The notes under the pieces were generated by a model that had not been told where the DNA came from, made no database searches, and saw only the letters and a program-made list of their open reading frames with translations. Shown here one piece after another: positions 4,719 to 64,000 of a stretch of 64,000 nt of DNA. A program made the translations under genes and the position numbers. Each line of letters begins with the position of its first letter. The first letter of the stretch is position 1. The stretch comes from Hexactinellida sp. DTS-2022 (taxonomy: Eukaryota > Porifera > Hexactinellida). Where the stretch lies: positions 2,542,001 through 2,606,000 of the forward strand of contig JAPNXP010000006.1 of the NCBI GenBank assembly GCA_028753945.1, in the 5' to 3' direction.

Positions 4719-4895
4719 TATGAATCGTACAATAAAAATGATTAATTTGAAATGGTTACCTTAAATTTGGAAGGAATTTCAACATCAGCTGCACAGGTGG
4801 GTTCGTCGTAGGTAGGGTGACCATTGTCCAGTTTTTAGCCTGGACAGTCCAGTTTTTTTAACAATTATTGTGCAATGTCAATTAATTTTCTAAAT

Positions 4896-6613: not shown

Positions 6614-6743
6614 ATTTATATAAAAAAATCACATATTTTTTTGATTGAATCAGATATTTGATTTAAATCATGATTTTTATCAATTATAATCATTGAATTA
6701 TTTTAAACAACCCTGATTTATGTTACTATAGAATCGCCAACCC

Positions 6744-8495
6744 AAATCATTCTATACTCTAAGGCAATGCCGCAGTTGAATGGACTTGGACCATGGATGA
6801 ACTAGTATAGTCAACTAAATATATGCAATGCAATTATTCTTCAAAATAAGTAATCCAGGGTACTTCTACTTATGTAACTGTTTTATATAAAGGTGGGCAT
6901 GTACAAGACGCATATTTTTGAGGTACCACTTGGTCGAAATGACGTCACCGTATTGTCTTTTAGGAAAAATATGCCAAAACTTTGAACGCATGTAAAATGT
7001 TCAATTTCGCTTTTTAAAACAAATTGATGTGACTAACCCATCTAGGAGTAATTTTGCATTAAATATTTCAGAATTAAGTATGGAATGTTACCACACACAT
7101 TCCTCTGTTGCCTTGGAAACGTGATTTCAATGCTTGAGGTCATATCTCGAGAAGAAATATAGTTACAGCTAAGTCAATGGATCCAATTGATCGCCCGTCC
7201 TCAACTTCCTATTCAAAGATACAGTCGAAATCGGGTTTTTTTGCCCCCCAAAATGCACGACAAAAGGAGGCAAAAAAACCCGATGGAAAACACATTAAGA
7301 TATCACATTTTTGCACGACAAAAGGAGGCAAAAATCCCAATAAGCAAAAAAACCCGTGGCAAAAAACCCCGATTTCGACTGTAATACATTTTGATGATTT
7401 ATCTCCAACCAATTTTCTGAGAATTGTGATTATTGTAATATACATTGAAATGATTATACACATTTTCCATAAAATTGGTTGGAAATAGAGCATCGAAATG
7501 TATTATCATTGAATAGGAAGTTAAGGACGGGCTATCGATTGGATCCATTGACTAAGCTGTGACTATATTCCTACTCGAGATATTACCTCAATCATTGAAT
7601 TTACGTTTCCAAGGCAACAGAGGAGTGTGGTAATATTCCATAATTGATTCTGAGATATTTTATGTAAAATAACTCCTAGATGGGTTATTCACAGCAATTT
7701 GTTTTTAAAAAGTGAAATTGAACATTTTACATGCGTTCAAAGTTTTGGCATATTTTCCTATTAGACAATACGGTGACGTCATTTCGACCAAGTGGTACCT
7801 CAAAATATGCGTCTTGTACATGACCACCTGTATATAAAAGAATTACATAAGTAGAAGTACCCTGGATTACTTATTTCGAAGAATAATTGCATTGCATATC
7901 AGGGTTGGGGCCAATTACGATTACAATCGTAATCGATTGTAATCTATTACACATTTCGCTGAATCGTAATCGTAATCATAATCAGATGATTCTATTAGAG
8001 TGTAATCATATCGTAATCGTAATCATGCTATTTTATAGCGTATTATCTTTGAAATTAAGGATATTATCAATTCGTAGTATTGCACCTGCGAAAGTGCTTT
8101 TATTCAATAACAGTCACATTAATTTGAATTCCATCATAATATATACTGTAACAGTGAAATTGACACTTTTAATTATTGTTAGTACTTTTAGATTCGAATT
8201 TATCAGACTTGGCCAGACCGCCTTTAGTATACATTTTGGGTTATTTTCATAATTGTAATCATAACAAGTTTATAGTAATTGTAATCGTAATCGTAATCAC
8301 AAATAAATTATAGAATGTAATCGTAATCGTAATCATAATCGTTTAAAAAATATAAATCGTAATCGTAATCGTAATCGTAATCATCTGAAAGTAATCGGCC
8401 CCAACCCTGTTGCATATATTTAGTTGACTATACTAGTTCATCCATGGTCCAAGTCCATTCAACCGCGGCATTGCCTTAGAGTATAGAATGCTATT
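6744..8495. mobile_element. Large foldback MITE with P-like ends, in the ATAD3 upstream intron
   Basis: The left arm (about 6744-7500) and right arm (about 7470-8495) are reverse complements over most of their length, including GGACTTGGACCATGGATGAA and GACGTCATTTCGACCAAG. The terminal motif CATTCTATACTCTAAGGCAATG closely matches that of the P element at 10041-13827 (CATTCTATACATAAGGCAATG), suggesting cross-mobilisation. The flanks GCCAACCC (6736-6743) and GCCAAACC (8496-8503) agree in 7 of 8 bases. There is no transposase. The right arm carries a nested hAT MITE. Confidence 0.75.
7900..8409. mobile_element. hAT MITE with GTAATC-repeat interior
   Basis: Ends CAGGGTTGGGGCC...GGCCCCAACCCTG with an exact 8-bp duplication TTGCATAT (7892-7899 and 8410-8417). 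Sub-terminal arrays of GTAATC/GATTAC units mirror each other. It inserted into the right arm of the P-like foldback element. Confidence 0.93.
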
Positions 8496-10040: not shown

Positions 10041-10293
10041 CATAGCATTCTATACATAAGGCAATGGCAGTCACTATATTTTTTGGACCAGGGATTGGTT
10101 AGTATATTCAAATTTACATTTTCCTTTATTACGTTATATAGGTTAGTTATGCAATATTATTAATTAAGACTAATTAATCTTCGTAATTATTTTTATTCCA
10201 GAATAAAACAACTATGACACAATGTAAATATATACGTATAGCTCATACAGGTATAAACACAAAATATACATTGGAGTTAAAGAACATGTCGGG

Positions 10294-10405
10294 ACAGACT
10301 TGTACTTCATAGACAGACTTGTACTTCATAGACAGACTTGTACTTCACAGACAGACTTTTACTTCATAGACTTACTTTTACTTCATCGACAGACTTGTGC
10401 TCATG
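10294..10405. repeat. 19-bp minisatellite
   Basis: Five to six imperfect tandem copies of ACAGACTTGTACTTCATAG, ending in shorter diverged units. It lies in the 3' non-coding part of P-element copy A. Confidence 0.85.
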
Positions 10406-10666
10406 TGGCGGTCACTGGCGGAGTTGTGCTAATGAGACGGACTTTACTTCGAAATATATTAAGAGTGATGGAGGCAAGCTTTGAACTAAAAGAAATAAAA
10501 ACAGGATTAGTTCTTGAATTTTTTAAGTTTAGAATTGTCGTGACCTAGAACCATCGCATTATATGTCTTTACTTTATTGGAAAGTAAACAATTAGAAAGA
10601 GTCACAAATAATTTCTGCTATATATCCCAACGTGACACGCTACAATCACACCAAACCCTCCACATA

Positions 10667-13531
10667 TTACCATACTTTGTTTCTGTCCTTATACAAGCTA
10701 ACTGAACAAGTTTTGTACGAGACGAACCAGTAAAAAGTTCTCAAACAGCTGTTTTCGACAGTCGATTTTACTAAATATGTCATATATAATTTTTGCAATA
10801 TCGATGGGTATTTCAGAGAACCTCTATCCAACAATTCTATTAGTCTAAACTGATTACCAATGTCATCTTTAGCCTGTATGGATTTTTCAGTCGTAAGAAA
10901 GCCTCTACACATTGGACAGCCATTTGATTTATTTAGGTATGAAAAAACTGCATAACCTGACACAAATGCGAGTCGCTCAACTTGAGAAATAGCTATTTCT
11001 GGAAGGGTGACCTGTTCTAAATTTGTGATAAGTTTTTCTAATTCAAAATTTGAGTCCTCGCCATCATCAGTAACACTAGAAAGGTATTCAAATATTCCAT
11101 GAGTGTAGGTTTATGAATGGTATCAGATTTAGTTTGATGTAAAATAGTTTTAGTATGTTAGAGAGTTGTAATCTGCGTTCGGATTCTAGGATTTGGCTAT
11201 AGGAGATTTGATAGTGGGAACCTGACATTTGTCTATACAAACCAAAATGATGTTCTAAATCTAAAGGATCGTTTTGTATCCTTGATGTCAACAGGTACTG
11301 GAAACCATATTTGGTACAAAGCATATCAACAAGCAAGGGCAGTGCGCTGCAAGTGTGTTTCAGACTTGTGAATGTCTGAGGTGACAGTTTTCCTTTAACA
11401 GTGGGAAGGTTTTTCCAACCGTCTAACCAGTTAACTACATTTCGTAGGAACAAGATTCGAGAGTCGTCTGGAGATAGAGGTCTAGAAAAGTCGTCATTAA
11501 AACGTATACCTTTCCCGACCCAATTTACATTAAACATTTTCCAGATTAATTAAATTCAGAAAATAAACAGTTTGGTTTTGACTTATACTTTTCCTTTCAA
11601 AATTGAGAGCTAATAGGCCAGCTGAAGTTGACTCGTGAAAATCTTAAGTGCCAAATTTACATTCTGTCTTTCCAAGGTAGATGGCCAATAAGCTTTGGAA
11701 GTTAATTTTGGTGCTCGTTTAAAAATGTTACAACTATCAGATTTGTATAAGGTCCTAATTTCATCAAAAACTGAATAGCATATTGTAGGATACAAAGATT
11801 TAGCAAAATTAGTTGTGTAAATTTTGAGTACAGAAGTATTGATCGATACTCTCAAATAAGCCTGAGATTCATCTTCAGCAGATGTATGGTTAGGAGTGAT
11901 ACAATCATTAAATTTAGGAAAAATAAAACTTTCTCGTAGTCTTTCAAATTTAACCAATTATTTCGAATTGATTTTAAATATGGACTATATCAAAAAATAA
12001 AATAAGGTCTCTATTTGGGTCACAAGGATGTATAACTTTAGGTAGCAGTGTTTTGTGATTTAGGGAAAGAAGTTTATATAAACTAACATTTAGGGGGTAA
12101 TTGTCGGTACAGACAGCATCTACATATAAATTACAACTTTCAATGTCCGAAATTGTCTTAATAACAATGGGTAATAGTGCAGCAGCAGAGCTAGAACCAA
12201 GAGGGACTAGTCTTACAATGGTAGAGAATTAGTCATCAAACCATTATAGAAAATACAGTGGTGGGTGGGTCTTCCGGATGGTCAATAGAGCCAATAATTC
12301 TACAACCTTTATAACTAGCATCGCTACGTATATGAACTTCGTCCATCTGAAGTATAACATGCCTCTCTAAATCTTTGAATGTAGATGAAAATTCCTTAAG
12401 TACACTTAGATATTCACTCTCTAGACCAATTGAATTTTTAATTTTGAGTAGATTACGTTCATGAGGGAGATTCAAACAATTTGAGGATTGGATTAGCCGA
12501 AAAACAAGCGGGAGAAATGCCGTGTACCTTGAGGGAAAAAACCTGCGTTGTCACGCTATAACGGCGCCCATATTTTGAAATTATTAAATATCTCAATTGA
12601 TCAAGTAGAAACATAATCCCAATTTTTGGTAATATAGGTAAGTTCTCGATTTGGGGTCTCTGAAATTCTATATCTTGATCACTCTGCTCTATTAGTTCAA
12701 TGGCACTTTGCAACTCAATAATAGCATTTTCAACATGCGTTTTAACGGAGGGTTGACGTTGGTTAGGTTTGCATTTAGGACTAATAACTGGAAATGTTTC
12801 AATTTATACTAACAATGTCTCAATCTGGCGGATGTCATTAATTTTGTTGAGAGATAAATATATTTGGCGCTTGTGTTGATCAAAACCATTAATCAATAAA
12901 CATTGGTCTATTACAAGTGAACATTGAATCGAAGGTTGGTGGTGATTTTTAGAAAGGTGTCTGTGTCGGGTTTGTGGACGACCCAACTATTAGTAAGATC
13001 GATGCAACTCAGCTTATCAACAACATCACTAAGAATACTGATTGAGAACTTATCTATGGCAGATGTATTGTCCACTATGCTCAGATTGATTGCAGTTTGA
13101 ACCATTGTCAGCTCTCTATCGTCTCTCGGAATTCTTTTTGTCTTCTCTGTAGTGTTTGTCAGGTAGCTGGGGCAGTTCGGGAATATAGTTGGTACAGCAG
13201 TCTTAGTCAGGGACAATCGGTCTCGTGGTGCCACAACCATCTTCTGTCCATCAAATATTCGAATGTCCTTTCATTGAATTCCTCTTTGAAGTGGAGTATA
13301 CAAACCTAAGAAATGATTCAATAATTTCGAATGTGAACTAATGATTAGTTTAAAATAAGTGTATAAGAGTATTTACCTTTATATTTATATTGTTCTGGTA
13401 ATCATCTACAGGTCTTGGAATGGCTCTAAACCATTTTTCACGAAGTTGTTCATCCTTGGGAAAACTAAAACTTTTGTGAAATGTTCTTCTCCCCGATAAT
13501 TCGAGGTACATCCGGGTACGATACAACTCAT
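10667..13531 (-). pseudogene. P-type (THAP9-like) transposase, broken, with an intron
   Basis: It starts at ATG 13531 with MSCIVPGCTSNYRG, the first half of a THAP zinc finger (C-x4-C). A GT-AG intron of 71 bases (13306-13376) splits the finger, and exon 2 opens with VCILHF, the C-x2-H half, then the AVPTIFPNCPSYL box at about 13195. Downstream frames give the RNase-H fold: HVILQMDEVH (first Asp, about 12360), the KGIRFNDDFSRPL region (about 11510), QNDPLDLEHHFGLYRQMSG (acidic pair, about 11270-11215) and the C-terminal FRLIELLDRGSLKYPS block (about 10855). Several frameshifts and stops separate the pieces, so it is not functional. The family cuts and pastes DNA using GTP as cofactor. Confidence 0.85.
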
Positions 13532-13827
13532 CTCGTTGATATTGAAGTTAGAATAAGTGTCTATATTAGATAATAATAATTTCAATATCGCTTATTTATG
13601 TTGAATAGTTAATTTAATCATTATGGGTTATTATTAAATAAATCTCGAAAACACCTAATTTGTAAATGTTTTATATGTTACAGGTTAGTTTTGCATCTCC
13701 TATACTATTTTTATATCAGAACAGCTTATGGATGTTATATAAAGGAAAAAATTTTTTGAATATACTAACCAATCCCTGGTCCAAAAAAAAATAGTGACTG
13801 CCATTGCCTTATGTATAGAATGCTATG

Positions 13828-16640: not shown

Positions 16641-17110
16641 GAAACCTCTAATTTACGCTTTTCATTTGCTCTTGAACTTAATAATGAGTTGTAATATTAA
16701 TTTTGTTTGTGATAATACAATTTGCTTCAGTAAATACAAGTTGGGGCACGATCTTCTACCTACAAGTATCGAAATTAACACAATTACATCTCCAAATATC
16801 ATCGTCACCAATTTCTCCTATAAAGATTAATGTGAATTGTACAAGAATTTCTCTAGATGATCGCATGAACCTTCCACATGTATAGCGCTTTCATTTTTTC
16901 GCATTAGCATGTTGTCAATTGTTCGCAATTATGAGGTTGTTATTTGTTCGACTAATATTTTCCTATGTTGTCATATTAGTTGAACAATATTTTCTTAGTT
17001 AAATAAATATTTGGGTACTTATGGAAAAGTATTAAGTTAACACAGTGGCACGGAATGGTCAAATTCTGGAAGTAGCTATTTGGGTATAAGATAGCGCATT
17101 AAACTACATT

Positions 17111-17536
17111 CAAGGCTGGATTCGGTTAAGATGTTAACCGTTACTGACATCGGTTATCGGTTCGAGATTTTATTAAACAGTTAGCCGGTATGTTGAATAT
17201 TAGCAGAGTTATTGGGAAATTATTGTATACACAGACAATAATACAGTATTCAGATTTTTGAATTTTATCAGAATATGTTAATCCTAAATCAATTTCTCAT
17301 AACCACTTAATAAATTCCCCTAGAGAACATTGATTTAACTTTATCTAAAGCACGAAATGTATCAGTTAATATACTTATGTGGTTTTACTTTATACAGCTG
17401 AGTCTTATTCTGTAGTATAATCATATTTTTATATCGGATTTATTGTATTGAGTAGGATGGGAGGTTAACCGGTAAACAGTGGCGAGAAATCGAATTGTAA
17501 CCGTAGCCTTAGATCGGTTAACCAATCCCACCCTTG
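17111..17536. mobile_element. hAT-like MITE, GGTTAACCG-rich
   Basis: Ends CAAGGCTGGATTCGG...CCAATCCCACCCTTG with CTACATT on both sides (17104-17110 and 17537-17543), seven bases. Sub-terminal GGTTAACCG-like motifs occur at both ends. It is non-coding. Confidence 0.75.
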
Positions 17537-17984
17537 CTACATTATACACCTATGGGATATCGCATTCATAGAATCCATTAGTAAAATTATATTTTTCAAT
17601 TGCTTCAGATGTGAAAGTAATGATGTAATTGTCATATTTTTTAGCATTGAACTCAACATAATTCCTCACAACTCACATTTCTTATTAATAGAAACGTGAA
17701 AATCTAATCCATTATGCATATTAATAGTGCCAACGTATCACTCACCCTAAATAACGAATATGCTAATTCATTATCAAATTATGACGTCATCAATGATAAT
17801 AATAAAATGTGAAAATTCACTTAATCGCAAGTTGGTCTGTACACTTAATGGCTTGTTGAATATTTAAAAATCATTTATTGAAGATTCTTCAAAAAGATAT
17901 AATGGGAAAACTAATAATTATACTTGAAAGCCAACTTTCATAATTCAGCTAAGCAACCACAATATTAAATAATATTGATATTTA

Positions 17985-18640
17985 TAAAATCCAAAATTGA
18001 AGCCTGTGCCGACTCATTTCGTAACTAGTAACTAGTAGTGCCTCCAAAGAGAATACTTCGGCACAGTCTGTAATTTTGGATATTTTTAGCCATGTCATGA
18101 ACACCTTAAGCAGTACCGGATTTAGGCTGTCGTGGGCCTAGGGCTAAGTCATTACTTCCTATTTTTATATCCCTTATTTAGATTGTATTATAACAATTGC
18201 TTCAGATCAAACGAACTATTCCCATACCTATGTACCATACTGTAATATATGGAACAAAACAGTGAATAGAAAATCCTCCAACAATTTCTTTTCAATAAAC
18301 AGTGAAGTGTGATTAAAATTTCTGTTTAAATAAGAATAAATTAGTTTCTACTCCCAAATCAATCCCATTTCCAGGTCAGTTTACCTAAACTGGGCCTGAG
18401 AAGGAAGTGGGCCTAGGGCTTTAGCCCAACCAGCCCTATGGTAAATCGACAACTGGCCTCAAGGTTTATCAAGTTGTTACTGTACAAAGGAACAATTGAT
18501 AAATTTCAAGCTTCTTTCTATCTTAAACCATCTTGAGTTTAATGCCATTCATTCATTATGTATTGATAATAGATTATAATATGAATAGTTAATTATTTTA
18601 GCAATGTTATCCACGGTGAGTTGAGTTAAGTTTGGACCAT
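17985..18640. repeat. Dispersed repeat R1, copy 1, split by a hAT MITE
   Basis: It contains AAGCCTGTGCCGACTC, GTGCCTCCAAAG and TTAGCAATGTTATCCACGG, shared with 36594-36880, parts of 55850-56280 and 58020-58265. Its core is a short hairpin (CTGTGCCGAC... and inverse). A hAT MITE (18111-18455) interrupts it. No coding capacity is visible. Confidence 0.65.
18111..18455. mobile_element. hAT MITE, diverged, inside R1
   Basis: It starts CAGTACCGGATTTAGG and ends CGATTT-type inverse CGACAACTG, with GGGCCTAGGGCT near both ends. The flanks ACCTTAAG and GCCTCAAG share 6 of 8 bases, and other R1 copies show GCCTCAAGG uninterrupted here, which supports an insertion. Confidence 0.65.
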
Positions 18641-18705
18641 ATATTTTCTACCCTTACAGGAAATATCAGATCTACTTGAATTTAATCCATTTCAAGTTTG
18701 AACTA

Positions 18706-19645
18706 CACTAACCGGCCAAAAGTATTACGTATTGGAACAACAATAATTGGTATTCCGACATTTGAGGTTATACCAGCATAATTACATTAGTAGATGTTAC
18801 AAAATGGCTATTTACATGAAACGATGTGTAAAGTATAATAAAACAGGAAAGCTTTCAAATTTACATTTTTATGGAGGCGGCATAGGCGCCAAGTTTGGGG
18901 TTTTTGGGGGGGCCGGCCCCCCCCATGATTTTATTTCGGGGGGCTGGGGGGGGCCAGCCCCCCCATATTGCTTATTGGGGAGGTGCTGGGGACGCTGGGA
19001 GGTTACTGGGAGCAACACCCGGACCTGTCTGTCGATTTAATTTTTATATGAAAGTGGTCCTTTTGATCGACCAAGGGATGATAGAGGGTGAGAATCACGT
19101 TTGTTACTCAATATATCCTGATTTTGTTTCTGAAGAAACAAATCTGGAAATATTTAGTAAAGATCCCAGTGGCCCCCCCCCCCAGACCCCCCAAGTGGCC
19201 CCCCCCATCTTTGATTATATTTTTCCAAAACTTGACGCCTATGGGAGGCGGTAAACTCATTAAATATATAATTAGCTAATTAAATAATTAATTTGTGACC
19301 ATTAAGATGCAATGTTAATATCTTAATTCTGATAGCAGATATGAATTCCACATGGTTAAATTATTCTAAGTGCTTAATTTCAAATTAATCCGAATATTTT
19401 CTGCTGTGGTACAGCCACATTTCCATTTGTGCCACTTATGCCACAAGTGGCACGTGGCAGAAACACTTATGCCACTTCGTGATTTTTTTAAAAATTGAAT
19501 AGAAATCACAATATTTCGTAATTTATATCTATAATAATATATATAGTAATTTCAGAGTAGTTTAGATAGTCGTTAATAAGTTACCGGACGAGTAATGTGT
19601 GTGTATTAAAATCCTTATTGTTCAAATACTTTTGGCTGGTTAGTG
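18706..19645. mobile_element. Tc1/mariner-like non-autonomous element M, copy 1
   Basis: Inverted ends CACTAACCGGCCAAAAGT...ACTTTTGGCTGGTTAGTG are flanked by TA on both sides (18704-18705 and 19646-19647). It includes a palindromic GTGCCACTTATGCCACAAGTG block near 19435. The same repeat, reversed, frames the P element at 48349-52942, and a worn piece is at 58660-58830. No transposase is visible. Confidence 0.8.
18881..19243. mobile_element. hAT MITE in element M
   Basis: Ends CATAGGCGCCAAGTTTGGG...CCAAAACTTGACGCCTATG with an exact 8-bp duplication GGAGGCGG (18873-18880 and 19244-19251). The interior is GC-rich, with runs of C and G. Confidence 0.92.
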
Positions 19646-19995
19646 TATGACATTTCTTTCCTCTGGACTAAAGAAGGAAGTGGCAGGCGAAGATATGTAC
19701 AAAAATCGTTTTCAAGACCAATTGAGGCATACAGTTCTCTAATGTATGAACATGAGGAAGAGAGATACAGTTTAAACTCTGAAGATACTTATAACAAGCA
19801 TGAGAAATAAAATGAGTTTTAATCGCCATGATTTGTGTTATGATGTTGTACCTCGTCTGTTCTTGGGAATAAATGTATTTTCTAATTGACCAAGTATGAA
19901 TTGCAAACGCGCTAATTCTGAGGTATCATTATTATGTTCATTATAAGTAGTAAATCATTGATGACCTTAATATGCTCTTTGCTCGAGGAAAATGA

Positions 19996-30649: not shown

Positions 30650-32880
30650 GGTAACCGGGCGATTCGGCCCACCAGTGAATTCGGCCTACAGTATTTAGGC
30701 TCACTCGGCCTGTGAGTGAATTCGGCCTACAGTATTTTCAAACAGATTTCCAGTTATTTTAATTGTCAGAAAAATTATAGTAATCTATATTATTAAATCT
30801 CGATTGTTGTTGTTGTTGTTTACACAAATAGGTAAACAAATTGAGCCGGTTGTGCCAGCCCTCTACATCATTGTTCGTTCGGATGTATCTCTTGTATACA
30901 CACCAGTCTTCTGGAGACCACTGTCCCTGGATCCACGTGGAGCGAACATAATCCACCAGAGGACGAAGCTGGTCATTGGTCACGGAAGCAATCTGGTCGA
31001 ACGAACGAATGATGTGGCCGACTGGCAGGTAGGGCAAGGCGAACAGCATCCGTATGTATTCGTGTACTGCTGAAACAGAGTTATACGCCACAACTAGTCC
31101 TAGCTCCTGTACCTTCCTCCAGAGGGCCTGGCTCCAGTGAAAGCTACAGCCTCGGATGTGCGCATCTGGGAAGATGATCCTCGCTGCCCTCCAGATGGAT
31201 GACTCGAAGTCGAGAATAAGGTGCGTCAATTCGAGACTAGGAGCGAGATCTTTGACTTTCTGGAATACAGCCATATAGTCCTTCTTCTTCTTTGAAGACA
31301 TCAGTACAAATATCAGTGGAACCTGTTTAATGTTTTTGCTGTCTGCATCCCCAAGAAATGTGTGAAATGAGAAGAGCTGTTTGAAGGGTGCCTTTACCAC
31401 CTTGAATGTGCCATCAAGGAAAAGGACTTTAGTTTCCGCAAGGATTTGCAATTGGTCAGGTGTTGTGAAGATAAGATTGCGCTGATCATCTCTTTTCACA
31501 TCACTGCAGAAAGTCTTCTGGAATGTGGTCTGCTACCAAATCAAACCTCAGGTCTGTGGGGTCTGCAGGGCGGTTCGCATGTCTGTGTCTGTTTGCTGCC
31601 CGGGCTAAGGTCACAGGGTTGCTTCGGCTCCCATATGGCATTTCTGGAGTCAGTTCTTCAACCATAACTTCCTCCACAGTTGACTGGGCTGACTTGAAGT
31701 AGTTTGCCTTCACTAATCGGAACGTCTTCTTCCTAACTTTCAATTTATCTGCAATTCCTGGCTGTCCCGCGTGGTCATGTTCACGGTCCTTAGAGAAGAT
31801 TTCACTCTCCTGCACCACTGTTGCACCACATCTTTTGCTACACCGCCACTGTATTTTGCCTGGCTGCCGGTATGTGCCCTTTTTCTATGCGTAGGAGTAT
31901 CCATATGAGTCACACAGGAGTGTTTCCCCACGCTCACTACAACCGTCAATGATCTCATACTCCACCTCATCTGACCGATTTATGAGGTGGGCTACATCAG
32001 GAAGGACTGGGACTACTGGTGGCTCCACCGGTAGAGGGACAGCACCTGGTTCAGAAAATGAGGACTCAATGTGGAAATCGCGGAGTGTTAGCTCAGCAAC
32101 TATAGTGTCTGCATCTGGGCCTTCTAAATTCACAGGATATGATTCTGACTCTGCGTCCTCTGCTCGCTGTGCACCAAAGTCTTCAGACACTTGGGTGATT
32201 CCAGCCTCTTGGTTTGGGTCAGCTAAAGTTAGACACCTGTAAAAGTACCAGGTCACATCTAATTCTCCTCTCTTCATACGATAATAGTCTGCTGCGGAGA
32301 ATTGAGTTTCACAGCTACGGTGCTGCCACCAATCACAACCTGGACGATCACACTGGATGGCATGTTGTCTGCCACGGACTTCTTCACTACAGTAAGCACA
32401 GGGAAAATATGTCTCATTAGGAAATTTACGCTTGTTACTTGTTTGCTGGACATGATAGATGTTGTTGTTGCAATAGTTAGACTTAAGACTGAATAAGTTG
32501 AAATTAGGTGGGCCTTTTATAGCTCCTTGAGGAACGCGTTTAAAGGCCCTATTGTATGTATTCAGAAGAATAGACGAAATTGTTAATTAGCACTTATGAT
32601 TTCACAACTATTTGTTTGGATTCACAACCTTTTCAGCTTCTAAGTTGTCATCTGACATATGTTATCTGACACCTCTTTCATTTGGATATAGGCTGAATTC
32701 ACCAATTTCTTCAGGCCGAATTCACCCATTTTCAGGCCGAAATCACTCGTAGGCCGAATTCACTCATAGGCCAAATTTTTTCTAGGCCGACATATGTTAT
32801 CTGACACCTCTTTCATTTGGATATAGGCTGAATTCACCAATTTCTTCAGGCCGAATTCACCCATTTTCAGGCCAAAGTTT
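30650..32880 (-). mobile_element. MULE with PHD-like finger and tandem-repeat termini
   Basis: A Mutator-like element lies inside the NOF/OTU element. Left end 30650-30740: repeated GTGAATTCGGCCTA units. Right end 32690-32880: the same units in the opposite orientation (AGGCCGAATTCAC). The termini are therefore inverted arrays of short tandem units rather than simple TIRs. The enclosed minus-strand gene is described separately. No clear 8-11 bp target duplication was found. Confidence 0.7.
30759..32440 (-). pseudogene. MULE transposase with N-terminal PHD-like zinc finger
   Basis: Near 32390-32255 the minus strand encodes FPCAYC, then HAIQCDRPGCDWWQHRSC and WYFYRC: C-x2-C, C-x4-C, H-x2-C and a final aromatic-Cys, the layout of a PHD finger lacking one late Cys. 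32255-31885 is an acidic linker. 31818-31501 is a second linker. 31499-30759 is an unbroken catalytic domain: LFLDGTFKVVKAPFKQLFSF (first Asp), THLILDFESSIWRAA (second), GCSFHWSQALWRKV (C-x2-H) and RTNNDVEGWHNRLN (Glu). The linker frames are out of register, and one base appears lost near the ATG at about 32451, so the gene as read is broken while its catalytic part is intact. MULEs usually carry a FLYWCH or SWIM finger. Confidence 0.78.
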
Positions 32881-48140: not shown

Positions 48141-49296
48141 AATAATTAAATGGTAGAACTTTCCTACTTCACTTTTGTCAATGCGGTATGGATCACAATT
48201 CCTCCGAAATTTTTTGTTTGAATGGGAAGGAATCTAACCGTTTAATAGATTATTCGGATAATCACCACAAATCAGATACCTGCAGGTAGCCTAATATTCT
48301 TCTTCATCCATTATTCTAGGAGTTTGGACAGGAAAAACTCTAGATATACACTAACCAGCCAAAAGTCTAAAATAATTATAAACTTTACTATAATTACATT
48401 GAAAAAGCATTATGATTTCATGCCATTTTAGCAAATATCCATGAAGTGACTTGTGTCTCTGGCTCTGCCACGTGCCACTTGTAGCATAAGTGGCACAAAT
48501 GGGAACGTGGCTGAGTCTGAGAAGAAAATAATCATAATGATTTGAAACTAAACACCTAGAGTAATTCGACCAAAATCTGAAATCAGAAGTTGCATATTCT
48601 AATTGCCTCTTAATGGTCATAAATTATCCATTTAATTATATCTTCACATATTAAGGTTTAGGTATACTTCCCAACACTTTTTGAACAATTTTTTGCAGAT
48701 TTGAAATAAGTATTTTGTATTAAATTCCCCGTGGCGAGATAAATCCAAAAATGCATTACTATTCGAATTAGGTAACATAGAATTTTTTAATTCATAAAGC
48801 ACATTTTGTATAATAGATAATTTTTTCTTGTTTATGATTAAGACTTGATTAATGTTTTATTACTTCGAGAAGCTTCTAATCTATCAGATGAATGTAAAAC
48901 TTCTTTTAATCACTTATGTCAAAGTTATGTGTGGAATTTTCCTTCAATAACTGCTAGAGCACTTTTCTTGTCATTAATTTTTTTAATAAAACTATAAATA
49001 AATGTTATAAATGAAATCCCTGCATTCATATGATAGAACTCTTTGAGAGCTGTCCAAAACCGTTGAGATTTTGTTTATAGGTGGTATATGAACCAAAATG
49101 TGTCTGATAAATCGTCAAAAGTTGTGGCTGGAGATGGCGGGGTCAGAATAAATGACCCCCTACAGGAGTGGCTTAGGTGGAGGTCACAAAAAAGTCGGTA
49201 TTATTAAAGTTTTCAATCTTTTTCTATAATATTTGGATTGGAGATGCGGCATAGGCTGTTCTATCCAAAAATGTTATAAAACCAATAAGTGGCAAA

Positions 49297-52200
49297 CACA
49301 GACTACGTAACTAAAGACTGTTCACGGCATTTAACCATGGATTACTTCAAGTCTTGTATCCAAACTGCTAAAATAATAATATTTCAAAAGCTACTAGACG
49401 TAAACGATCTAAATCATAATAAAGTCAAGTTTCATTTTAATAATGAGGATGCTCCATCATTTAAGGACACCATTTACCTAATTGGTGCTGACATCACGCA
49501 AGATAAATATAAAAGTTGAACTAGGAATACATTTAAATAACTATTTTGATTGTAGTTTCAGTAGTTTTCTTTTCGATCCGGTAGATTTTTCAATACATCG
49601 TTTCGAATTTAAATTTCGGACTTTATTCTTTAACAAACAATTGCTAGTAGAAAAAAGTATTCGATTGAGATACCATAGGAAAGGTGTTTGACATTTGGGA
49701 CACGTAAATCTCCAGAATTGAAAATTCTCAAATTCTAGTCTTGAAATTGATAATTGAATAAGAATATTTCTGCTGCTACTAATAACAAATTGTCTCATTA
49801 AAGAAAAGTTCTGTTCTATTCTGAAAAGAATTCTCCATAAACTGGAGACCGCATTAATAACTTCATCAGAAGGATATTTAAGCCCCCCTCGATCTGCTAA
49901 CTCGATGAGAATCAAGTGAGAATCCTCACATTCAAGAGAAAGACTTTTGAGTTGGGTGAGTAAGGGCACATATTCAGGACACAGAGAAGTAGCGGCTTTA
50001 ACTTTTTTCGAATATAACTTCGACTTAAATATACTATGTATAGCATAACCAGCTATAAAGGTTAAGGCTTGACGAGTTTCTTTAAGGGGTGAAAAATCAA
50101 AGTTTTGATGGAGAATAAAATAGTAAGAGCTCAGATCTAGTTCAGGTTTCTCAACATTCTCAGTTTCAATGTCAACAGAAAAAGTGTTAACGAATTCCTT
50201 CAATGAAGTTTCAAATGTATTATCTTGGCTTCGATAGAGTTTTAAAATGTTAGAGAGTTTTATCCGGCGTTCGCTTTCAAGAATTTGGCAAATGGATATA
50301 TTGTAATTACAACCAGACATTAGCCTGTATACCCCAAAGTGTTTTTCTAGAGAATCGTTTTGTAAGAAACCTGTCAAGACATAAGAAAAACCACAAGAGT
50401 CACTGGTTAAGTAGTTCACAATTCTTGGTAAAACTCGGCATGTATGAATTAAACTGGTAAATGTATGTGAGCTAAGTTTTCCATCTCTACCGATACAGTT
50501 GAGTGTCTTCCAATCCTGAAGCCATGAAACAAATCTAGAAAAGAACTCAAAACGTTCATCCTGTAATGTGAAAACCCTTGAATCAGGATCGAGCAGGCGG
50601 ATATCTTTCCCTGGACTTTGTATGTTACACATTTTCCAAAACCGGGTTATAAGTGAAATAAATTGAGAAGTTTGATTTGAAATGTTATTCTTTTGATTGT
50701 ATAACAAAACAGCATTGTATGTTGACTGATCCCATACCGCAAGAGCCAAAGGTACACTTTGCCTTTCAAGTGTGGATGGCCAAACGACTCTAGATGTTAA
50801 TTTATGAGCTATCTTGGCATTTGAAAATTGTTCAAGCTTGTAAATATTTCTGAGATCGATGAAAGAAGCAGTTGAAATCTGATAAGGAAAAGTTCCACCA
50901 AAATAATGATCAATAGAAGGAAAAGTAAATGTCGTATTGGTATCCTTTTGATTAATCCAGTTATTCCGGATACACTTAACTATGTGCACCGGATCAAACA
51001 TCAAAAAAATGGATCTTGTAGGGTCTGAAGGGTTAGGACAAGTTAATTCTAAATTAGATGAATTGTCAGCTAGTAATTTGAATAATCTAACGTTAAGTTG
51101 GTAATCGTCTGTACAAATCGCTATTACTCTAAGATCACATTTCTCAATGTCAATAATAACTTGTTTTACTATTGGAAGTAATTCAGAGGCTTTAGTATTG
51201 CAACAGGGGAGAAGTCTAACGATCTCTGACCACTTTGTGTAAAGGCCTGAAACTTGAAAAGCTAGTACAGTTTTAGCTGGGTCACATTCAGAAGATATGT
51301 CCTCTGCATCATCTAAATCCCAATTGATACAAGAGGATCCAAAAAAATTTCCACCTTTGTAAGTGTAATCGGTTTTCACATGAATTTCGTCGAGCTGTAA
51401 AAGGATATTCCTTTTATATTTGTTAAAAGCCTTACAATAAACTTTAAGATAGTCAATAAAATATGTATCTAATCCCATGTTTGAATATAGTCTTCGGAGT
51501 GTTGATGGATGAGGCAAAGAGAGGCATTCCAATGATTGCAGATAACGGTAACATCCAGAAGATATCAGTTGGGCTTTGAGAGAAAGAACCAATGTTAACA
51601 CGTTATACCGACGGTTATTTTTACTAAGTTTCAAATTTTCAAGTTGACATAGGATGAACTGTAGTCGAATAGAAATATCCTTTAATTCTTTCGTATCATC
51701 TTTCGTTTTCAACTTTTCCACTGTAAGTCTAACGGAATCTGTAGCTTGCATGATACCAACCTCAATCTCATCTTGTTGATGCGTATCAAGCTCTTCAATT
51801 AAATCAGAAATCTGGCGGATATCAGTAATATCGGTAATTTTAGTCTTCATCTCAACTTCATTTAGAAAACATCTAACATGTAAAGAATCATAAATAAGGA
51901 TTTGATGTGACATGATTAGTAAATGTCCAGACAGTATCCTCTTGAAAACATTTATCGTTGTCGGGCCTGAGCGAAAATAGAACCATTGTTGAGCTAAATT
52001 TAATATTGAATGCTTCTGTTCAATTTCTTCAATATTTGAAACAGAGAACTTTTCACTTTCTGTTTTAGATTCAGCAAGACTCAGCTCAAGAGCTTTTTGA
52101 AAATGTCGAAAATCAATTACATTTCGGTCAAACCTTTCTGCATGTTCAGAAGAGCTCTCCAAATACGAAGGACAATTGGGTAGATAAATAGGTTTGGCAT

Positions 52201-52720
52201 TCTTCCGGAGTCCAGGTTTACGGGAAACTTTCTCAACGGTTCCATCTTGCTGAGGTATCTCAACATGAAGTAAAAGGTCATCGTCACCAAAGTGTTTCGC
52301 ACAAATAAATACTCTGGTCAACTCCCATGCATCTTCACGATGTAAAAATTTACGCCATTCATCCTGAGTATCTTTCGGCCAATGATTTAACATTTCAAAT
52401 ACTGGTGTATACTGTGTACCGTCGTAATTTGAGGTGCAATTTGCAACGCTACATCTGTTTGGCATATTATTGCTATAAAGAGAAGTAATAATGTAAAGAC
52501 GAGCTATTATAAATTAGGCAGTAATAATTAATGTAATAGTAATAAACAATAATTTTATACAAAAGCTAATACTAGCTATGAATATACCTACATTGATTAC
52601 CACGGGAATTAGTAGTAATTTCGTATTCAAACATTATGGTTTGTTTACAAAATAGACTTGAAGTAATCCATGGTAGTGGAGAAGTCAGACCGTGAACAGT
52701 CTTTAGTTACGTAGTCTGTG
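49297..52720 (-). mobile_element. Complete P element
   Basis: The 31-bp terminal repeats at 49297-49327 and 52690-52720 are identical inverted copies, starting CACAGACTACGTAACTAAAG. AGTGGCAAA (nine bases, or an 8-bp duplication with one shared base) flanks both sides (49288-49296 and 52721-52729). A 21-bp sub-terminal inverted repeat starting ACCATGGATTACTTCAAG lies at 49334-49354 and 52654-52674. The single gene inside has an unbroken frame. Size is 3424 bp. The architecture matches Drosophila P (31-bp TIRs, internal repeats, 8-bp duplication). It looks whole and recent. Confidence 0.95.
49541..52465 (-). CDS. P-element transposase (THAP9-like), intact
   Basis: A 974-codon frame from ATG 52465 to 49541. 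Residues 5-59: THAP zinc finger with C5-x4-C10, W29-P30 and C55-x2-H58, then the P-I-Y-L-P box at 92-96. Residues 100-290: helical, with a Leu-rich stretch probably for oligomerisation. RNase-H fold: LLQLDEIHV (D359), ICTDDYQLN (D453/D454), MFDPVHIVKCIRNN (489-502, like the GTP-binding insertion region of P transposases), LQNDSLEKHFGVYRLMSG (D704, E707). The C-terminal GYAIH and DRGGLKYPS blocks also occur in the two decayed relatives in this window. A pair CPKC lies at 922-925. The length is close to human THAP9 (about 900). No intron is needed, unlike Drosophila P and copy A here. The enzyme cuts the element ends and reinserts them, using GTP as cofactor in the family. TIRs lie 244 bp and 255 bp outside the frame. 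Confidence 0.95.
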   Translation of the reverse strand: MPNRCSVANCTSNYDGTQYTPVFEMLNHWPKDTQDEWRKFLHREDAWELTRVFICAKHFGDDDLLLHVEIPQQDGTVEKVSRKPGLRKNAKPIYLPNCPSYLESSSEHAERFDRNVIDFRHFQKALELSLAESKTESEKFSVSNIEEIEQKHSILNLAQQWFYFRSGPTTINVFKRILSGHLLIMSHQILIYDSLHVRCFLNEVEMKTKITDITDIRQISDLIEELDTHQQDEIEVGIMQATDSVRLTVEKLKTKDDTKELKDISIRLQFILCQLENLKLSKNNRRYNVLTLVLSLKAQLISSGCYRYLQSLECLSLPHPSTLRRLYSNMGLDTYFIDYLKVYCKAFNKYKRNILLQLDEIHVKTDYTYKGGNFFGSSCINWDLDDAEDISSECDPAKTVLAFQVSGLYTKWSEIVRLLPCCNTKASELLPIVKQVIIDIEKCDLRVIAICTDDYQLNVRLFKLLADNSSNLELTCPNPSDPTRSIFLMFDPVHIVKCIRNNWINQKDTNTTFTFPSIDHYFGGTFPYQISTASFIDLRNIYKLEQFSNAKIAHKLTSRVVWPSTLERQSVPLALAVWDQSTYNAVLLYNQKNNISNQTSQFISLITRFWKMCNIQSPGKDIRLLDPDSRVFTLQDERFEFFSRFVSWLQDWKTLNCIGRDGKLSSHTFTSLIHTCRVLPRIVNYLTSDSCGFSYVLTGFLQNDSLEKHFGVYRLMSGCNYNISICQILESERRIKLSNILKLYRSQDNTFETSLKEFVNTFSVDIETENVEKPELDLSSYYFILHQNFDFSPLKETRQALTFIAGYAIHSIFKSKLYSKKVKAATSLCPEYVPLLTQLKSLSLECEDSHLILIELADRGGLKYPSDEVINAVSSLWRILFRIEQNFSLMRQFVISSSRNILIQLSISRLEFENFQFWRFTCPKCQTPFLWYLNRILFSTSNCLLKNKVRNLNSKRCIEKSTGSKRKLLKLQSK

Positions 52721-53025
52721 AGTGGCAAAGTACCCGAAAGTGGAAAATTTTATGGTTTACCTAAACCTTAATGAGTTTAACACCTCAATAAAATGTAACT
52801 TCAAAAAATTTGACATATTAGTATACTTTGATTTATGTAAACATCTATGTTGAGGGATCAAATGTTATTATGCTGCTAGAAGCTTGAATGTATGAATACT
52901 AATTGTTGTAGTTCAATAACTTTTGGCCGGGTAGTTTATATAAGATAGTTGCATTATACGTAACATAACGTATATATGGTACCATTATACGATAGGTGAA
53001 CGTATAATGCCATAATACGTTAGAG

Positions 53026-58265: not shown

Positions 58266-58873
58266 AATGTACCCACTATACTAATGTTCTGGCAAGAGCA
58301 ATATACGTAGTTGTTTGGCTGAAAGTTGGCATTTAGGCGCGGAGTGACCGCCTAATTCCCATCAAACTATTTTAACACTTACTTAAACTAATTCTAGCTC
58401 ATAACATGAATTAATCACTGTGGATACTGATGTTAAATTTATTAATTTTATAATAATATACATATACTTAAGCAGCTGCGAGGCAGGAATTTTGTCAGGG
58501 AGAGCAAAGTTTGCTAAAGAAGAATAAACGTGCAGATATTTATTAAATTCCTTGGCAAAAAGTATTTGAACAAAAGAATTCTGATGCAGATACAATAATC
58601 TTCTGGCAGCGCACTACCGCTGTTTAAACCACTCTTAAATTACATAATATCTTAATATATATATAATTAAAAAACATGCGATTTTTGGACATTTCTGTCA
58701 ATTTCCATGATGTCCCACGTCTCACGTGGTATTCAAATAAGAAATCAGAATTTGTATATTGTAATTGTCTCCTGATAATTGGAAACTACATATTTAATTA
58801 GCCCATTAGATAGTTAAGGAGTTTGTCACCTCCATAAAAATTCATAATAAAAAAGCTAAAAAAAATGCTAATC
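58266..58873. other. Spacer with a worn piece of element M
   Basis: 58660-58830 (CACGTGGTATTC, GAAATCAGAATTTGTATATT, AATTGTCTCCTGATAATTGG) is a diverged version of 48470-48640. No gene is seen. Confidence 0.5.
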
Positions 58874-61464
58874 CATAGCCTACTCTATATATGGCCTGAT
58901 AGTAACTTATAAAATATGGACCAAGGATTAAGGAGAAGATGGTAATATTTATCCAACCACAATATTTATTTCAAAAATAATAATAATAATCAACCACATT
59001 AATTAGAAATATTCTTGAAATATATACAACTATTGATCAGATTTTATTCCAAAGTCTTCTATTGACGTACAATCTCATCCTTTTAATTTCGCTCTGTTAT
59101 TTTATTCATATTAGCATCTATTCATGCCTAACTCGTGTTCTGTTCCCGGTTGCAAGAGTAACTACAACCCGGATGCCCATGTTCCTGCGTTCAAGATGCC
59201 TCAAAACCACCAACGCTGAATCATGCCTGGACATGCGCTCTTCGTCGCGAGGATATTGGTGACCTGAAGGTGGTCTATGTATGTAACAACCATTTTCAGA
59301 AAGAAGACATAGAGTACACTTTCAAAGTCCCAAAAGGAGATGGTACTTTTACTGAAGTACCGCGGGCGAAGCCAAAGCTGAAGGAAGGCGCTGTACAAAG
59401 TTTACTGCCCGGCTGCCCAGCGTATTACTCATCCTAACCTGACAAACAGAATCGCTTGTCATACGATGCAAAAGATGAAGAATTGATGAACCAAACACTA
59501 CAACTCAGCTTGAGATCCGAGAGTCAAGAGAAAGAGAAGGGAAGTTTGTAGTCAACTCTACAGGACTTGAAAGATAAGTTAAAACCTTGATTTATTCACC
59601 TAATAGTTGGTTGGTGTGATTCCGTAATGAGAGTAACATAACGTTTGTTCTCGCTAAAATGGCTGAAAAAAATTCTCAGTAGATCTGTACCTTGAAAGTT
59701 GAAATCAATGTTTGTCTATCCACCTCAGCCGAATTTAATGGACAGAGTATATCCGTTGCTGCAATTAATGACATCCGAGAAATTGAATCTGTATTGCAGG
59801 AACTTGCTTTTTAATACAACTCTATAGTTATTGTGATTATCCCCTTAAGCTCGGTTGTGCATCCTTTGAAGATGTACGTCAATTATATAATTCAGAAAGA
59901 ACAAGTTTAGCCAAGTTAGCTCCTCATTTGACTATGGTGTCATGTTTTCCGTCTAGCATAGAGCGTCAAAATGTCAAACTGGTTTTGAAATGCGGTAACG
60001 ACATAACAATATCTGCGCTAACTATCCGGAACGAATTGAGTTATCCAGAATATAGAAAGAATACTCCGGAGTTTGTTGATACCCTTCTTACTGTTTTGAA
60101 ATTATTCAACGTTAGCACACCATTTAAAGGAATACGTTTGAACGATAATTTCTCGAGACCTTTGACTTTTAATGACGAGCGATTTCTACTTTGACTTGTG
60201 TAGTTTTGGTAAGATGCTTGGCAAACTGAGTAAACAAACATACACCAGTTTTAGACATGCTTGTATTGCCTTACCACAAATTACCAACCATTTGACTCAA
60301 TCTTTTGGCTTTACATATGTGTTATCCTCCTTTCTATAGACGGATCCCTTGGACACCATTTCGGTCTATACCGTATGATGTCGGGTTCTAATTATCACAT
60401 TTATCTTCAAATCCTTGAACCGTGCATCCACTTGAACTTTCTAGCATATTAAACATATTTACTGACCAACAAGACACTTCCTTTCAAACTATTCAGTCAT
60501 TTGTCAAGTCATTTTCTTGTCCGTATTCCACTACTGATGGTGAATTCAATTTGGAGCCATTTCTTGATGAGATTAATGATCTATCAACAATTGATTGTGG
60601 TTCACAGTTGCTTCAATCATTAGCTTTTATTGCAGGCTATTCTGTTCATCAGTACCTGAAACAAACAAAACCGTGTCATGTCTGTCTACGTATGCTAACA
60701 GTTGATAAAGAATTTCTCCTTTATTTAGACCTGGACTCTCAGTATAAACTTATGCAGGGAACGGACCGTGGCGGACTTAAATATCCATCTGAGCCAGTTT
60801 TGAAATCCATTCTTGTTTTATGGAAGACCTTTAGTGCCATCGAAAACAATAAAGAGCTGTTGGCGAAACTTGTAAGTGGACCTTCTAGAAAAATACTAGT
60901 TGAACTTTCGTTGATGTATTTGGAAGTCTACTTGTATTATCGGTATGTTTAGTTGGAACATATTATCGAAGCTAGTCTACCGCAGCGAATTGCTTTCTTG
61001 CAAACAAAGTTAATAATTATAACTCGCTGGTTCCTTTCAAAAGCGTAATATAAAGAAATTCTCTTAATTATGTGTTTACTTATTTGTATTTACCATGATT
61101 TGTATTACTCTGTTTATTCTAATTTCTATTATGTAGTTAAGTGTGTCGTGTGTCACTGCTAGAGCCAGAGAGAGAAAGAGGAGAGAGGAAAGAAAGCATA
61201 TAATTGTGTAGTATTCACTGTATATTAATATTAGAAATTGTACTGTTTGTGTTTATTATTACTATTAAATTATGAAAATCCAATCACCGTTCTCATTATA
61301 GCTAATATTAATTACGGGCTAGCACGGCTGAGTTATGTTTACGACCTAGAGACGTATAAAGAACTTAGTAATCCAATATAGAAAACATTAAAAAATTAAA
61401 ATTTCCCATCTTCTGGTGCATCCCTGGTATATCTACTGTCAGGCCATATATAGAGTAGGCTATG
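58874..61464 (+). mobile_element. P-element copy C, broken
   Basis: Ends CATAGCCTACTCTATATATG... inverted at 61464, with similarity running about 60 bases inward (ACCAGGGAT, AGAAGATGG). GCTAATC flanks both sides (58867-58873 and 61465-61471), seven bases as in copy A. It contains a decayed plus-strand transposase. Confidence 0.85.
59124..60952 (+). pseudogene. P-type transposase of copy C
   Basis: From ATG 59124: MPNSCSVPGCKSNYNPD, the first THAP half (C-x4-C). In a shifted frame VVYVCNNHFQKED gives C-x2-H, followed by a KPKLKEGAV box and LLPGCPAYY. The region of the first catalytic Asp is missing or unreadable: only about 0.35 kb lies between the N-terminal part and the 59928 frame. 59928-60194 gives SSIERQNVKLVLK and GIRLNDNFSRPLTF. 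About 60330-60400 gives LGHHFGLYRMMSG (Glu region). 60422-60952 gives SSILNIFTDQQDTS, LAFIAGYSVHQYL and DRGGLKYPSEPVL. Roughly 700-800 bases of the usual gene are lost, besides several stops and frameshifts. Confidence 0.8.
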
Positions 61465-62920: not shown

Positions 62921-63827
62921 AGCGATATATTATGTATTATTGTACTATAGGTTATTCACCCTTAGGAACCCATTTCTTCAAAGAGATTTATTGTGTGGCC
63001 ACTTTTCTTAAAGTTATAGTTTTATAATAAATTTTCATATAATTAATGTATTGTGGTTGTTTAATAGTTAATCAACAAATTTTTATATAATGAATGTATT
63101 GTGGTTGTTTAATCAACAAATTTTTGACAACAATGTTATGTAATAGCGATTCGACTAATAAATTCTGTTCTGCTGTGTTGTCCTGCTGTTTTATTCATTA
63201 AAATCGACAGAAATGATTGATTGCGCCACAAAATTTACATTTTTTAATAAAACAGGATCACTTTCACTCAATATACGTAAAAAGACATCTCTAATGTTTG
63301 AATTTAATGAACACTTTCTTGAAAGATACTCTCGATAGTTTCTAATCAACTTATTACAAGCCTCTAAAGCTTCTTCAGAATATTGTTTCATACCATATCC
63401 ATCATTGCAGCTTTGAATGAGTTCCACACTATGTGCTAAGATTTTATGCAGAGAGGGAGTGACATTTACCAACGGAAATTCGACGATAATAAACTCGTAT
63501 GTATATTTACAAATGTTGTCCAGTTTATCTGTGTCAATTGCCTGACCACAATTAAAGACTCGCAGAATAGCTGAAAGATTGAGATGTTTTAGTTTGATTG
63601 GTTCTCTTGATTCTAATGGTATTAAAGTTGATACCCATTCAATAAAATTATTCTTACCAATAAAACATGATGAGCAACATTACCAGTTGATGTTGTTCCT
63701 CAGTACTCGATACCTGATTTATCTTTATCCCAGTTTTTTCTAGTAAGAATTCACGTACAAATTTCATTGAATCCTGGATACGTTTCGATGTGGCGGCCCA
63801 TTTATAAGTTCCAGATTGTAATAGTGG
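62921..63827 (-). pseudogene. RAG1/Transib-like transposase, copy 2, split by FB1
   Basis: Minus strand: 63472-63191 encodes SLHKILAHSVELIQSC and YSEEALEACNKLIRNYR, the same C-terminal RAG1-like core as in copy 1 (Glu region), and ends with a normal stop. About 63800-63680 gives KRIQDSMKFVREFLLEKTG and the GTTSTGNV block in a second frame. Upstream it is cut by the FB1 element at 63828, with the rest presumably beyond the window. The 3' flank (62945-63005: CTATAGGTTATTCACCC) resembles that of copy 1 (20748-20765), so the element end may be near. Confidence 0.75.
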
Positions 63828-64000
63828 GGTCAAAAATTAAGGTTCCGACCCCAACCTCTGGCTAGTTAAGTTTCATGCCTGATTCTGATACTTCAGGATA
63901 TAACTCGCGATTTAAGCTCCCATGCCGCTCTGGAAAGTTTGGGCAAACTTTTTATAGCGACAAATTCAAAGGGCCTCCGGCAATCATTTGAAAAATTAAT
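63828..64000. mobile_element. FB1 foldback element, copy 2, cut by window edge
   Basis: It starts GTGGGGTCAAAAATTAAGG after TA (63826-63827), then follows the left arm of 3662-4718 with few differences (GGCTAGTTAAGTTT, CAAATTCAAAGGGCCTCCGG). It continues past 64000. Confidence 0.85.

What the first reader, a model, noticed from the sequence alone, without database searches (positions are those of the whole stretch)
49297..52720. Apparently complete, recent P element outside Drosophila-like context
Seen: two identical 31-bp terminal inverted repeats, a 21-bp sub-terminal inverted repeat, a duplicated AGTGGCAAA target and an undamaged 974-codon THAP transposase with D359, D453/454, D704 and E707 in place. 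Known: active P elements are described from Drosophila, while most animal P/THAP9 copies are dead or domesticated. Inference: this copy moved recently and may still be able to move. It needs no intron, so the germline splicing control known in Drosophila P is not evident.
Basis: partly seen in the sequence, partly recalled or inferred. Interest (0 to 1): 0.78.

Follow-up and report, generated by a model that had tools for sequence, protein, structure and literature searches.

The report
Intact, recently inserted P-like jumping gene
An animal genome of unknown species carries an undamaged, recently inserted relative of the fruit-fly P element, beside several dead cousins that share its end signals; it is a good candidate for a working P-type transposon, but P elements outside flies are already known.

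Summary
Window 49297-52720 (3424 bp) has perfect 31-bp terminal repeats, a perfect 21-bp sub-terminal inverted repeat, a 9-bp target duplication and one open 974-codon frame with THAP and P-type RNase H domains. Profile alignment to the fly P transposase (recalled letters checked against PDB 6p5a) places D359, D453, D704 and E707 on D230, D303, D528 and E531. It is a complete, recently inserted P-superfamily member. Two claims need changing: it is not alone (two more end-to-end P-like elements with broken transposases, a non-autonomous relative and remnants share the 64 kb), and recently mobile P elements are already published from Anopheles and zebrafish. New here: the word ACCANGGAT at both ends of all three end-to-end elements, 9-10 bp further in at the transposase 5' end in two of them, the polarity reported for fly P; and a GTP pocket in which D444 aligns to lysine in all three. 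The copy sits inside an older Tc1-like element, so is younger than that. Present activity, other copies and host species could not be tested; no genome is held.

The parts
49297..52720 (-). Element C: complete P-superfamily transposon, 3424 bp (the finding)
   Evidence: TIRs, target duplication and intact transposase
49297..49327 (+). 31-bp terminal inverted repeat, transposase 3' end
   Evidence: 31/31 identical to the other arm
52690..52720 (-). 31-bp terminal inverted repeat, transposase 5' end
49334..49354 (+). 21-bp sub-terminal inverted repeat starting ACCATGGATT, offset 38 from the end
52654..52674 (-). 21-bp sub-terminal inverted repeat starting ACCATGGATT, offset 47 from the end
49288..49296 (+). 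target duplication AGTGGCAAA, left
52721..52729 (+). target duplication AGTGGCAAA, right
49541..52465 (-). 974-aa THAP / RNase H transposase, one open frame
   Evidence: hhalign to DmTNP probability 97-98
10041..13827 (-). Element A: related P-like element, 7-bp duplication GTTGAAC (taking the tip as CATAG), frameshifted transposase
13306..13376 (-). 71-bp GT-AG intron-like stretch inside the THAP coding part of element A; C and D have no insert there
   Evidence: joining restores the C-x2-H end of the THAP motif in frame
58874..61464 (+). Element D: related P-like element, 7-bp duplication GCTAATC (taking the tip as CATAG), broken transposase with an internal gap
6743..8495 (.). Element F: non-autonomous relative of A (ends approximate, read by eye); arms 80 of 81 identical over 6748-6828 / 8410-8490, ACCATGGAT at both ends
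16699..19930 (-). Remnants of further P-like transposase: 19698-19930 (E 1e-13; 3.6e-14) and, weakly, 16699-16860 (E 0.006; not listed); one element or two not settled
48347..52941 (.). Older Tc1-like non-autonomous element into which C inserted; arms TACACTAACCAGCCAAAAGT and its diverged inverse

Best explanation
A complete, autonomous-looking cut-and-paste DNA transposon of the P superfamily that inserted recently into an older Tc1-like element. Likely working: the single-frame transposase is made from the element's own promoter region; its THAP domain binds the sub-terminal repeat (ACCATGGATT...) at each end; a dimer pairs one near-site end (offset 38, 3') with one far-site end (offset 47, 5'), as the fly P transposase pairs its unequal ends; the D359/D453/E707 RNase H site cuts the ends and joins them to a new target, leaving a short duplication. 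Shown: anatomy, open frame, alignment of the catalytic residues, shared end word, spacing, nesting. Inferred: THAP binding to that word, end pairing, chemistry, expression, and that it still moves.
For: Perfect 31-bp TIRs, 21-bp sub-terminal repeat and 9-bp duplication. Intact 974-codon frame; under neutral decay the chance of staying intact falls to 5% at about 2.1% divergence counting substitutions only, or 0.9% with one indel per ten substitutions; 0 of 52 differing sites between the arms gives an upper bound near 2.9% per arm. Pfam RNaseH_N and THAP. hhalign of the C/A/D rows to DmTNP: probability 98.0 and 97.4, E about 1e-11, against at most 0.5 in 6 shuffles and 1 reversal. Word ACCANGGATT: 6 in the window, 0.60 expected, 0 of 100 shuffles reach 6; 5 of the 6 lie at ends of A, C, D; random triplets of 50-bp stretches share any such word in 37 of 200,000. 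Offsets C 38 and 47, D 37 and 47, the far site at the transposase 5' end in both, as in fly P (5' 53-63, 3' 41-51; PMC3688188 passage). Over 899 aligned codons from nine pieces, mismatches are 0.48, 0.36 and 0.62 at codon positions 1, 2 and 3: past selection on the protein. TATAAA 94 bp before the ATG and ATTAAA 99 bases past the stop (weak).
Against: Only one copy in the window and no genome to look for others. The duplication is 9 bp, where P gives 8 and Galileo 7-8, and A and D give 7. Element A has nearly equal offsets (47, 48), so the spacing rule is not universal here. Single-sequence and two-row searches of the PDB did not find the P transposase. Pfam's GTP-binding, HTH and RNase H C-terminal models match DmTNP but not this protein, and four of the eight GTP-contact positions differ, so enzyme activity is unproven. 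Both AlphaFold models failed (mean pLDDT 31.6 and 37.4).
Confidence: 0.85

Rival explanations
1. Recently inserted but already inert copy: ends and frame look whole, yet a substitution has killed the enzyme, or the copy was moved by another element's transposase.
For: Four of eight GTP-contact positions differ from DmTNP; no Pfam match to the GTP-binding domain; zebrafish THAP9 shows that an intact-looking relative can excise without transposing (abstract).
Against: The changed residue D444 to K is shared by three separate families here, so it is not fresh damage in this copy; in C the catalytic D359, D453, E707 and also D704 are kept.
Confidence: 0.4
2. A host gene tamed from a P transposase (THAP9-like), kept intact by selection for a host job.
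For: Long intact frame among decayed relatives.
Against: Human THAP9 is described as lacking TIRs (PMC7776569 passage); here TIRs, sub-terminal repeat and duplication are all perfect, and the copy sits inside another mobile element.
Confidence: 0.05
3. The duplication is really 8 bp, as in other P elements, and one end of the element has gained a base, the ninth matching base being chance.
For: Eight is the P rule (passages); an 8-bp reading needs one extra terminal A on one side and a one-in-four match. Element A can likewise be read with 8 bp (GTTGAACC) if one tip is shortened by a base (flanks, read by eye).
Against: With the symmetric 31-bp ends the match is exactly 9 on both sides; A and D give 7 by the same symmetric rule.
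Confidence: 0.35

Closest known systems
Drosophila melanogaster P element / P transposase (PDB 6p5a)
   Same: 31-bp perfect TIRs starting CA (fly tip recalled), THAP domain, D-D-E RNase H core with D528 equivalent, sub-terminal site further in at the 5' end than at the 3' end
   Different: About 23-24% identity over the aligned part; one open frame instead of four; 974 aa instead of 751; 9-bp duplication instead of 8; sub-terminal word unlike the fly 10-bp site (recalled); GTP contacts K400, S409, F443, D444 not kept
Anopheles gambiae P subfamilies (PMC1562414)
   Same: several P families in one genome, TIRs 27-31 bp, autonomous and non-autonomous forms, recent mobility
   Different: there three putative exons (one more intron in AgaP3), 8-bp duplications, 876-895 aa in the three intact reference copies (section read); insertion polymorphism was tested there, not here
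Zebrafish Pdre2 / zfTHAP9 (PMC10983969)
   Same: non-Drosophila P transposon with TIRs, sub-terminal repeats and a long transposase; first-to-second D spacing 87 there, 94 here
   Different: 13-bp TIRs with distant 12-bp sub-terminal repeats and 8-bp duplications; GTP contacts reported conserved there
Galileo (PMC4168063, PMC3688188)
   Same: 7-bp (rarely 8-bp) duplications, consensus starting G and ending C, like elements A and D here; A also has long TIRs (97 bp, 92%)
   Different: Galileo TIRs are far longer with several THAP sites, the first about 70 bp in (passages read)

Membership tests
P superfamily | N-terminal THAP zinc domain | tested here: met
   PF05485 7.9e-7, above gathering score; C5, C10, C55, H58
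P superfamily | RNase H D-D-E core equivalent to D230, D303, E531 | tested here: met
   PF21787 3.9e-14; hhalign places D359, D453, E707 (E707 also)
P superfamily | GTP-binding insertion domain with its contact residues | tested here: inconclusive
   Region aligns to DmTNP (probability 88-94), but PF21788 hits DmTNP and not C. V401, N447, D528 kept; K385 ambiguous; K400, S409, F443, D444 changed
P superfamily | Terminal inverted repeats starting CA, about 31 bp | tested here: met
   31/31, starts CACAG
P superfamily | 8-bp (P) or 7-8-bp (Galileo) target duplication | tested here: inconclusive
   C 9 bp; A and D 7 bp with symmetric tips
P superfamily | Sub-terminal transposase sites with unequal spacing, further in at the 5' end | tested here: met
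   Spacing only: C 47/38, D 47/37; A 48/47 does not show it. Binding itself not tested
P superfamily | HTH domain, leucine zipper | tested here: inconclusive
   PF12017 hits DmTNP, not C; zipper not tested
Drosophila-type P element | Four coding exons with a regulated third intron | tested here: not met
   One open frame of 974 codons
Domesticated THAP9 | Transposase gene without TIRs or target duplication | tested here: not met
   TIRs and duplication perfect
Kolobok (also THAP-bearing, recalled) | TTAA target duplication (recalled) | tested here: not met
   AGTGGCAAA, GTTGAAC, GCTAATC
Active transposon | Near-identical copies or empty sites in the population | not testable with these tools
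   No genome held; no confirmed match in viral, bacterial-genome, phage or plasmid collections

The most novel reading that the evidence does not exclude
This genome hosts a P lineage with a rebuilt nucleotide pocket: in elements A, C and D the position of the GTP-contacting D444 is lysine, and that of K400 is serine or asparagine, while N447 and the D528 equivalent are kept in all three and the catalytic D, D, E are kept in A and C (in the decayed D the first two are deleted and the E reads G). Such a transposase might use another cofactor or none, which would separate the end-pairing rule from GTP dependence inside one superfamily.
Probability: 0.2. Interest if true: 0.7.

Novelty: new member of a known kind. 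Interest (0 to 1): 0.4.

Why it matters
An intact P element whose transposase needs no splicing could be tested directly as a transposition tool and as a case of P control without the fly's third-intron switch. Several families sharing one end word give a natural test of whether the unequal, V(D)J-like end spacing of P is an old rule of the superfamily. If the altered GTP pocket is real, it offers a way to ask what GTP does in P transposition.

Tried and rejected
Copies or relatives elsewhere: by peptide patterns, nothing in viral contigs, and 76 (viral) and 22 (genome contigs) pattern matches of which none was confirmed by tblastn; none by exact TIR words; none by tblastn in phages or plasmids. 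These collections are viral or prokaryotic, so absence says little. PDB by sequence: three weak matches (E 0.59-0.70: THAP2, a 'hypothetical protein', an acetyltransferase) and one with a two-row profile (THAP2, E 1.4); neither found the P transposase. AlphaFold on the whole protein with one relative, and on residues 299-760 alone, gave mean pLDDT 31.6 and 37.4, so no fold search was run. Paralogous empty site: the Tc1-like copy at 18704-19648 aligns on both sides of the insertion, but not across it. Host species: not found; an ATAD3-like exon and the THAP domain (animal-only per PMC7776569 passage) point to an animal. First protein alignment A1 of scattered pieces misaligned and was dropped. 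Literature: 9 searches in the open-access library; those for intronless P elements with a THAP domain, for 7-bp P-superfamily duplications and for end spacing returned no paper holding all terms. Repbase is not held and may well list such families. The review PMC7776569 gives the fly spacers as 9 bp (5') and 21 bp (3'), the reverse of the site positions in PMC3688188 and of my recall; I follow the latter.

Full report
What is there. Positions 49297-52720 hold a 3424-bp element. Its outer 31 bp are identical in inverted orientation, a further 21 bp are identical inside (49334-49354 and 52654-52674), and AGTGGCAAA lies directly outside both ends. The minus strand carries one frame of 974 codons. 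Pfam finds TNP-like_RNaseH_N (3.9e-14) and THAP (7.9e-7), both above their curated cut-offs. In 200 shuffles of the element the longest open stretch was 166 codons.

Family. A three-row profile (C plus pieces of A and D) aligns to it with probability 98.0 and E 7.7e-12, and 97.35 on a second run with other settings; C alone gives 91.9; six shuffled and one reversed control give at most 0.5. D230, D303, D528 and E531 fall on D359, D453, D704 and E707. Plain sequence searches of the PDB did not find it. DmTNP was also run against Pfam as a control: it matches the GTP-binding, HTH and RNase H C-terminal models, and C matches none of these three even at E up to 10. So it is a P-superfamily transposase, but a distant one.

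Neighbours. The window holds more of the kind. Element A, 10041-13827, has ends CATAG...CTATG, a 7-bp duplication GTTGAAC, a frameshifted transposase and a 71-bp GT-AG stretch inside the THAP coding part that C and D lack. Element D, 58874-61464, has a 7-bp duplication GCTAATC and a broken transposase with an internal gap. These 7-bp readings assume symmetric CATAG tips; with an asymmetric tip A allows 8. Element F, about 6743-8495, is a non-autonomous relative of A. A further remnant lies at 19698-19930 and a weak one (E 0.006) at 16699-16860. Over 899 codons aligned between C and nine pieces of A and D, mismatches are 0.48, 0.36 and 0.62 at codon positions 1, 2 and 3, a sign of past selection on the protein.

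End signals. The word ACCANGGAT occurs ten times in the window on both strands against 1.93 expected, and 0 of 100 shuffles reach ten. Eight of the ten are at ends of A, C, D and F; the two others (37873, 47330) are at no recognised P end. The longer form ACCANGGATT occurs six times against 0.60 expected, five at ends of A, C and D; the right end of D has only the shorter form. Offsets from the tip are C 38 and 47, D 37 and 47, A 47 and 48; F about 47-48, read by eye. In C and D the far site is at the end where the transposase gene starts. A Galileo study states that fly P has its THAP site at 53-63 (5') and 41-51 (3') (PMC3688188 passage), the same polarity. The review compares this spacing to the 12 and 23 bp V(D)J signals (PMC7776569 passages), but gives the two spacers in the opposite order. 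A does not show the inequality. The word was chosen after seeing the ends, and A and D have related ends, so the independent support is mainly C against A and D: random triplets of 50-bp stretches share any 10-base word with one wildcard in 37 of 200,000 draws.

Age. C lies inside a Tc1-like non-autonomous element (48347-52941) whose own arms have diverged (86.96% over 23 bp) and whose copy at 18704-19648 is about 69-72% alike where it aligns. C is therefore younger than that element. Staying intact by chance has a 5% probability at about 2.1% neutral divergence (substitutions only) or 0.9% (one indel per ten substitutions); 0 of 52 mismatches between the arms bounds divergence near 2.9% per arm. 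These are rough upper limits, not dates.

GTP pocket. The review lists D528, K385, K400, V401, S409, F443, D444 and N447 as GTP contacts conserved in the P family (passage). Under both hhalign and MAFFT, C keeps V401, N447 and D528, while K400 becomes S570 (N in A and D), S409 becomes D579, F443 becomes W610 and D444 becomes K611 (K also in A and D); K385 aligns ambiguously. At D528 element A reads D, and D also reads D but has G at the catalytic E (tblastn; that stretch of D is missing from the rows). Identity here is low and no structure could be predicted, so this is a lead.

Recently mobile P elements outside Drosophila are in print: Anopheles gambiae (one section read) and zebrafish, where excision was shown in cell assays but transposition was not (abstract, introduction and part of the results read). 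What remains unusual is the single open frame and the 9-bp duplication. Whether other invertebrate P families share these could not be checked, since Repbase is not held; one search found no open-access paper holding its four terms.

Verdict. An ordinary kind of thing in very good condition: a new member of the P superfamily, probably recently active, with two testable oddities (shared unequal end signals, changed GTP pocket). Interest 0.4.

Noticed in passing
window 20972-23124 (-): Three ORFs; the last (20972-21367) matches the Transib transposase 6pqn (E 1.4e-8) and RAG1L 6b40 (8e-4), the middle one (21565-22677) RAG1 only weakly (0.04); the first was not placed: a damaged Transib/RAG1-like transposase.
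   Followed up: partly
window 8830-9786 (+): 318-aa ORF with AAA domain and the end of ATAD3_N (0.00015, below cut-off): probably a host ATAD3 exon.
   Followed up: partly
window 30759-31499 (-): MULE transposase domain (2.2e-11).
   Followed up: no
window 18704-19648, 48347-52941, 58555-58833: Tc1-like non-autonomous family with arms TACACTAACCAGCCAAAAGT (seen at the first two places); C is inside one copy, and a partial copy ends about 40 bp before D.
   Followed up: partly
window 3659-4125 and 4255-4721; 63821-63999: 467-bp inverted repeat pair, 97.7% identical, with a third partial copy at the window's end.
   Followed up: no
window 49289-49519 (+): 76-codon ORF on the plus strand crossing the left TIR of C; no test made.
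   Followed up: no
window 37873 (+) and 47330 (-): ACCANGGAT words that are at no recognised P end.
   Followed up: partly
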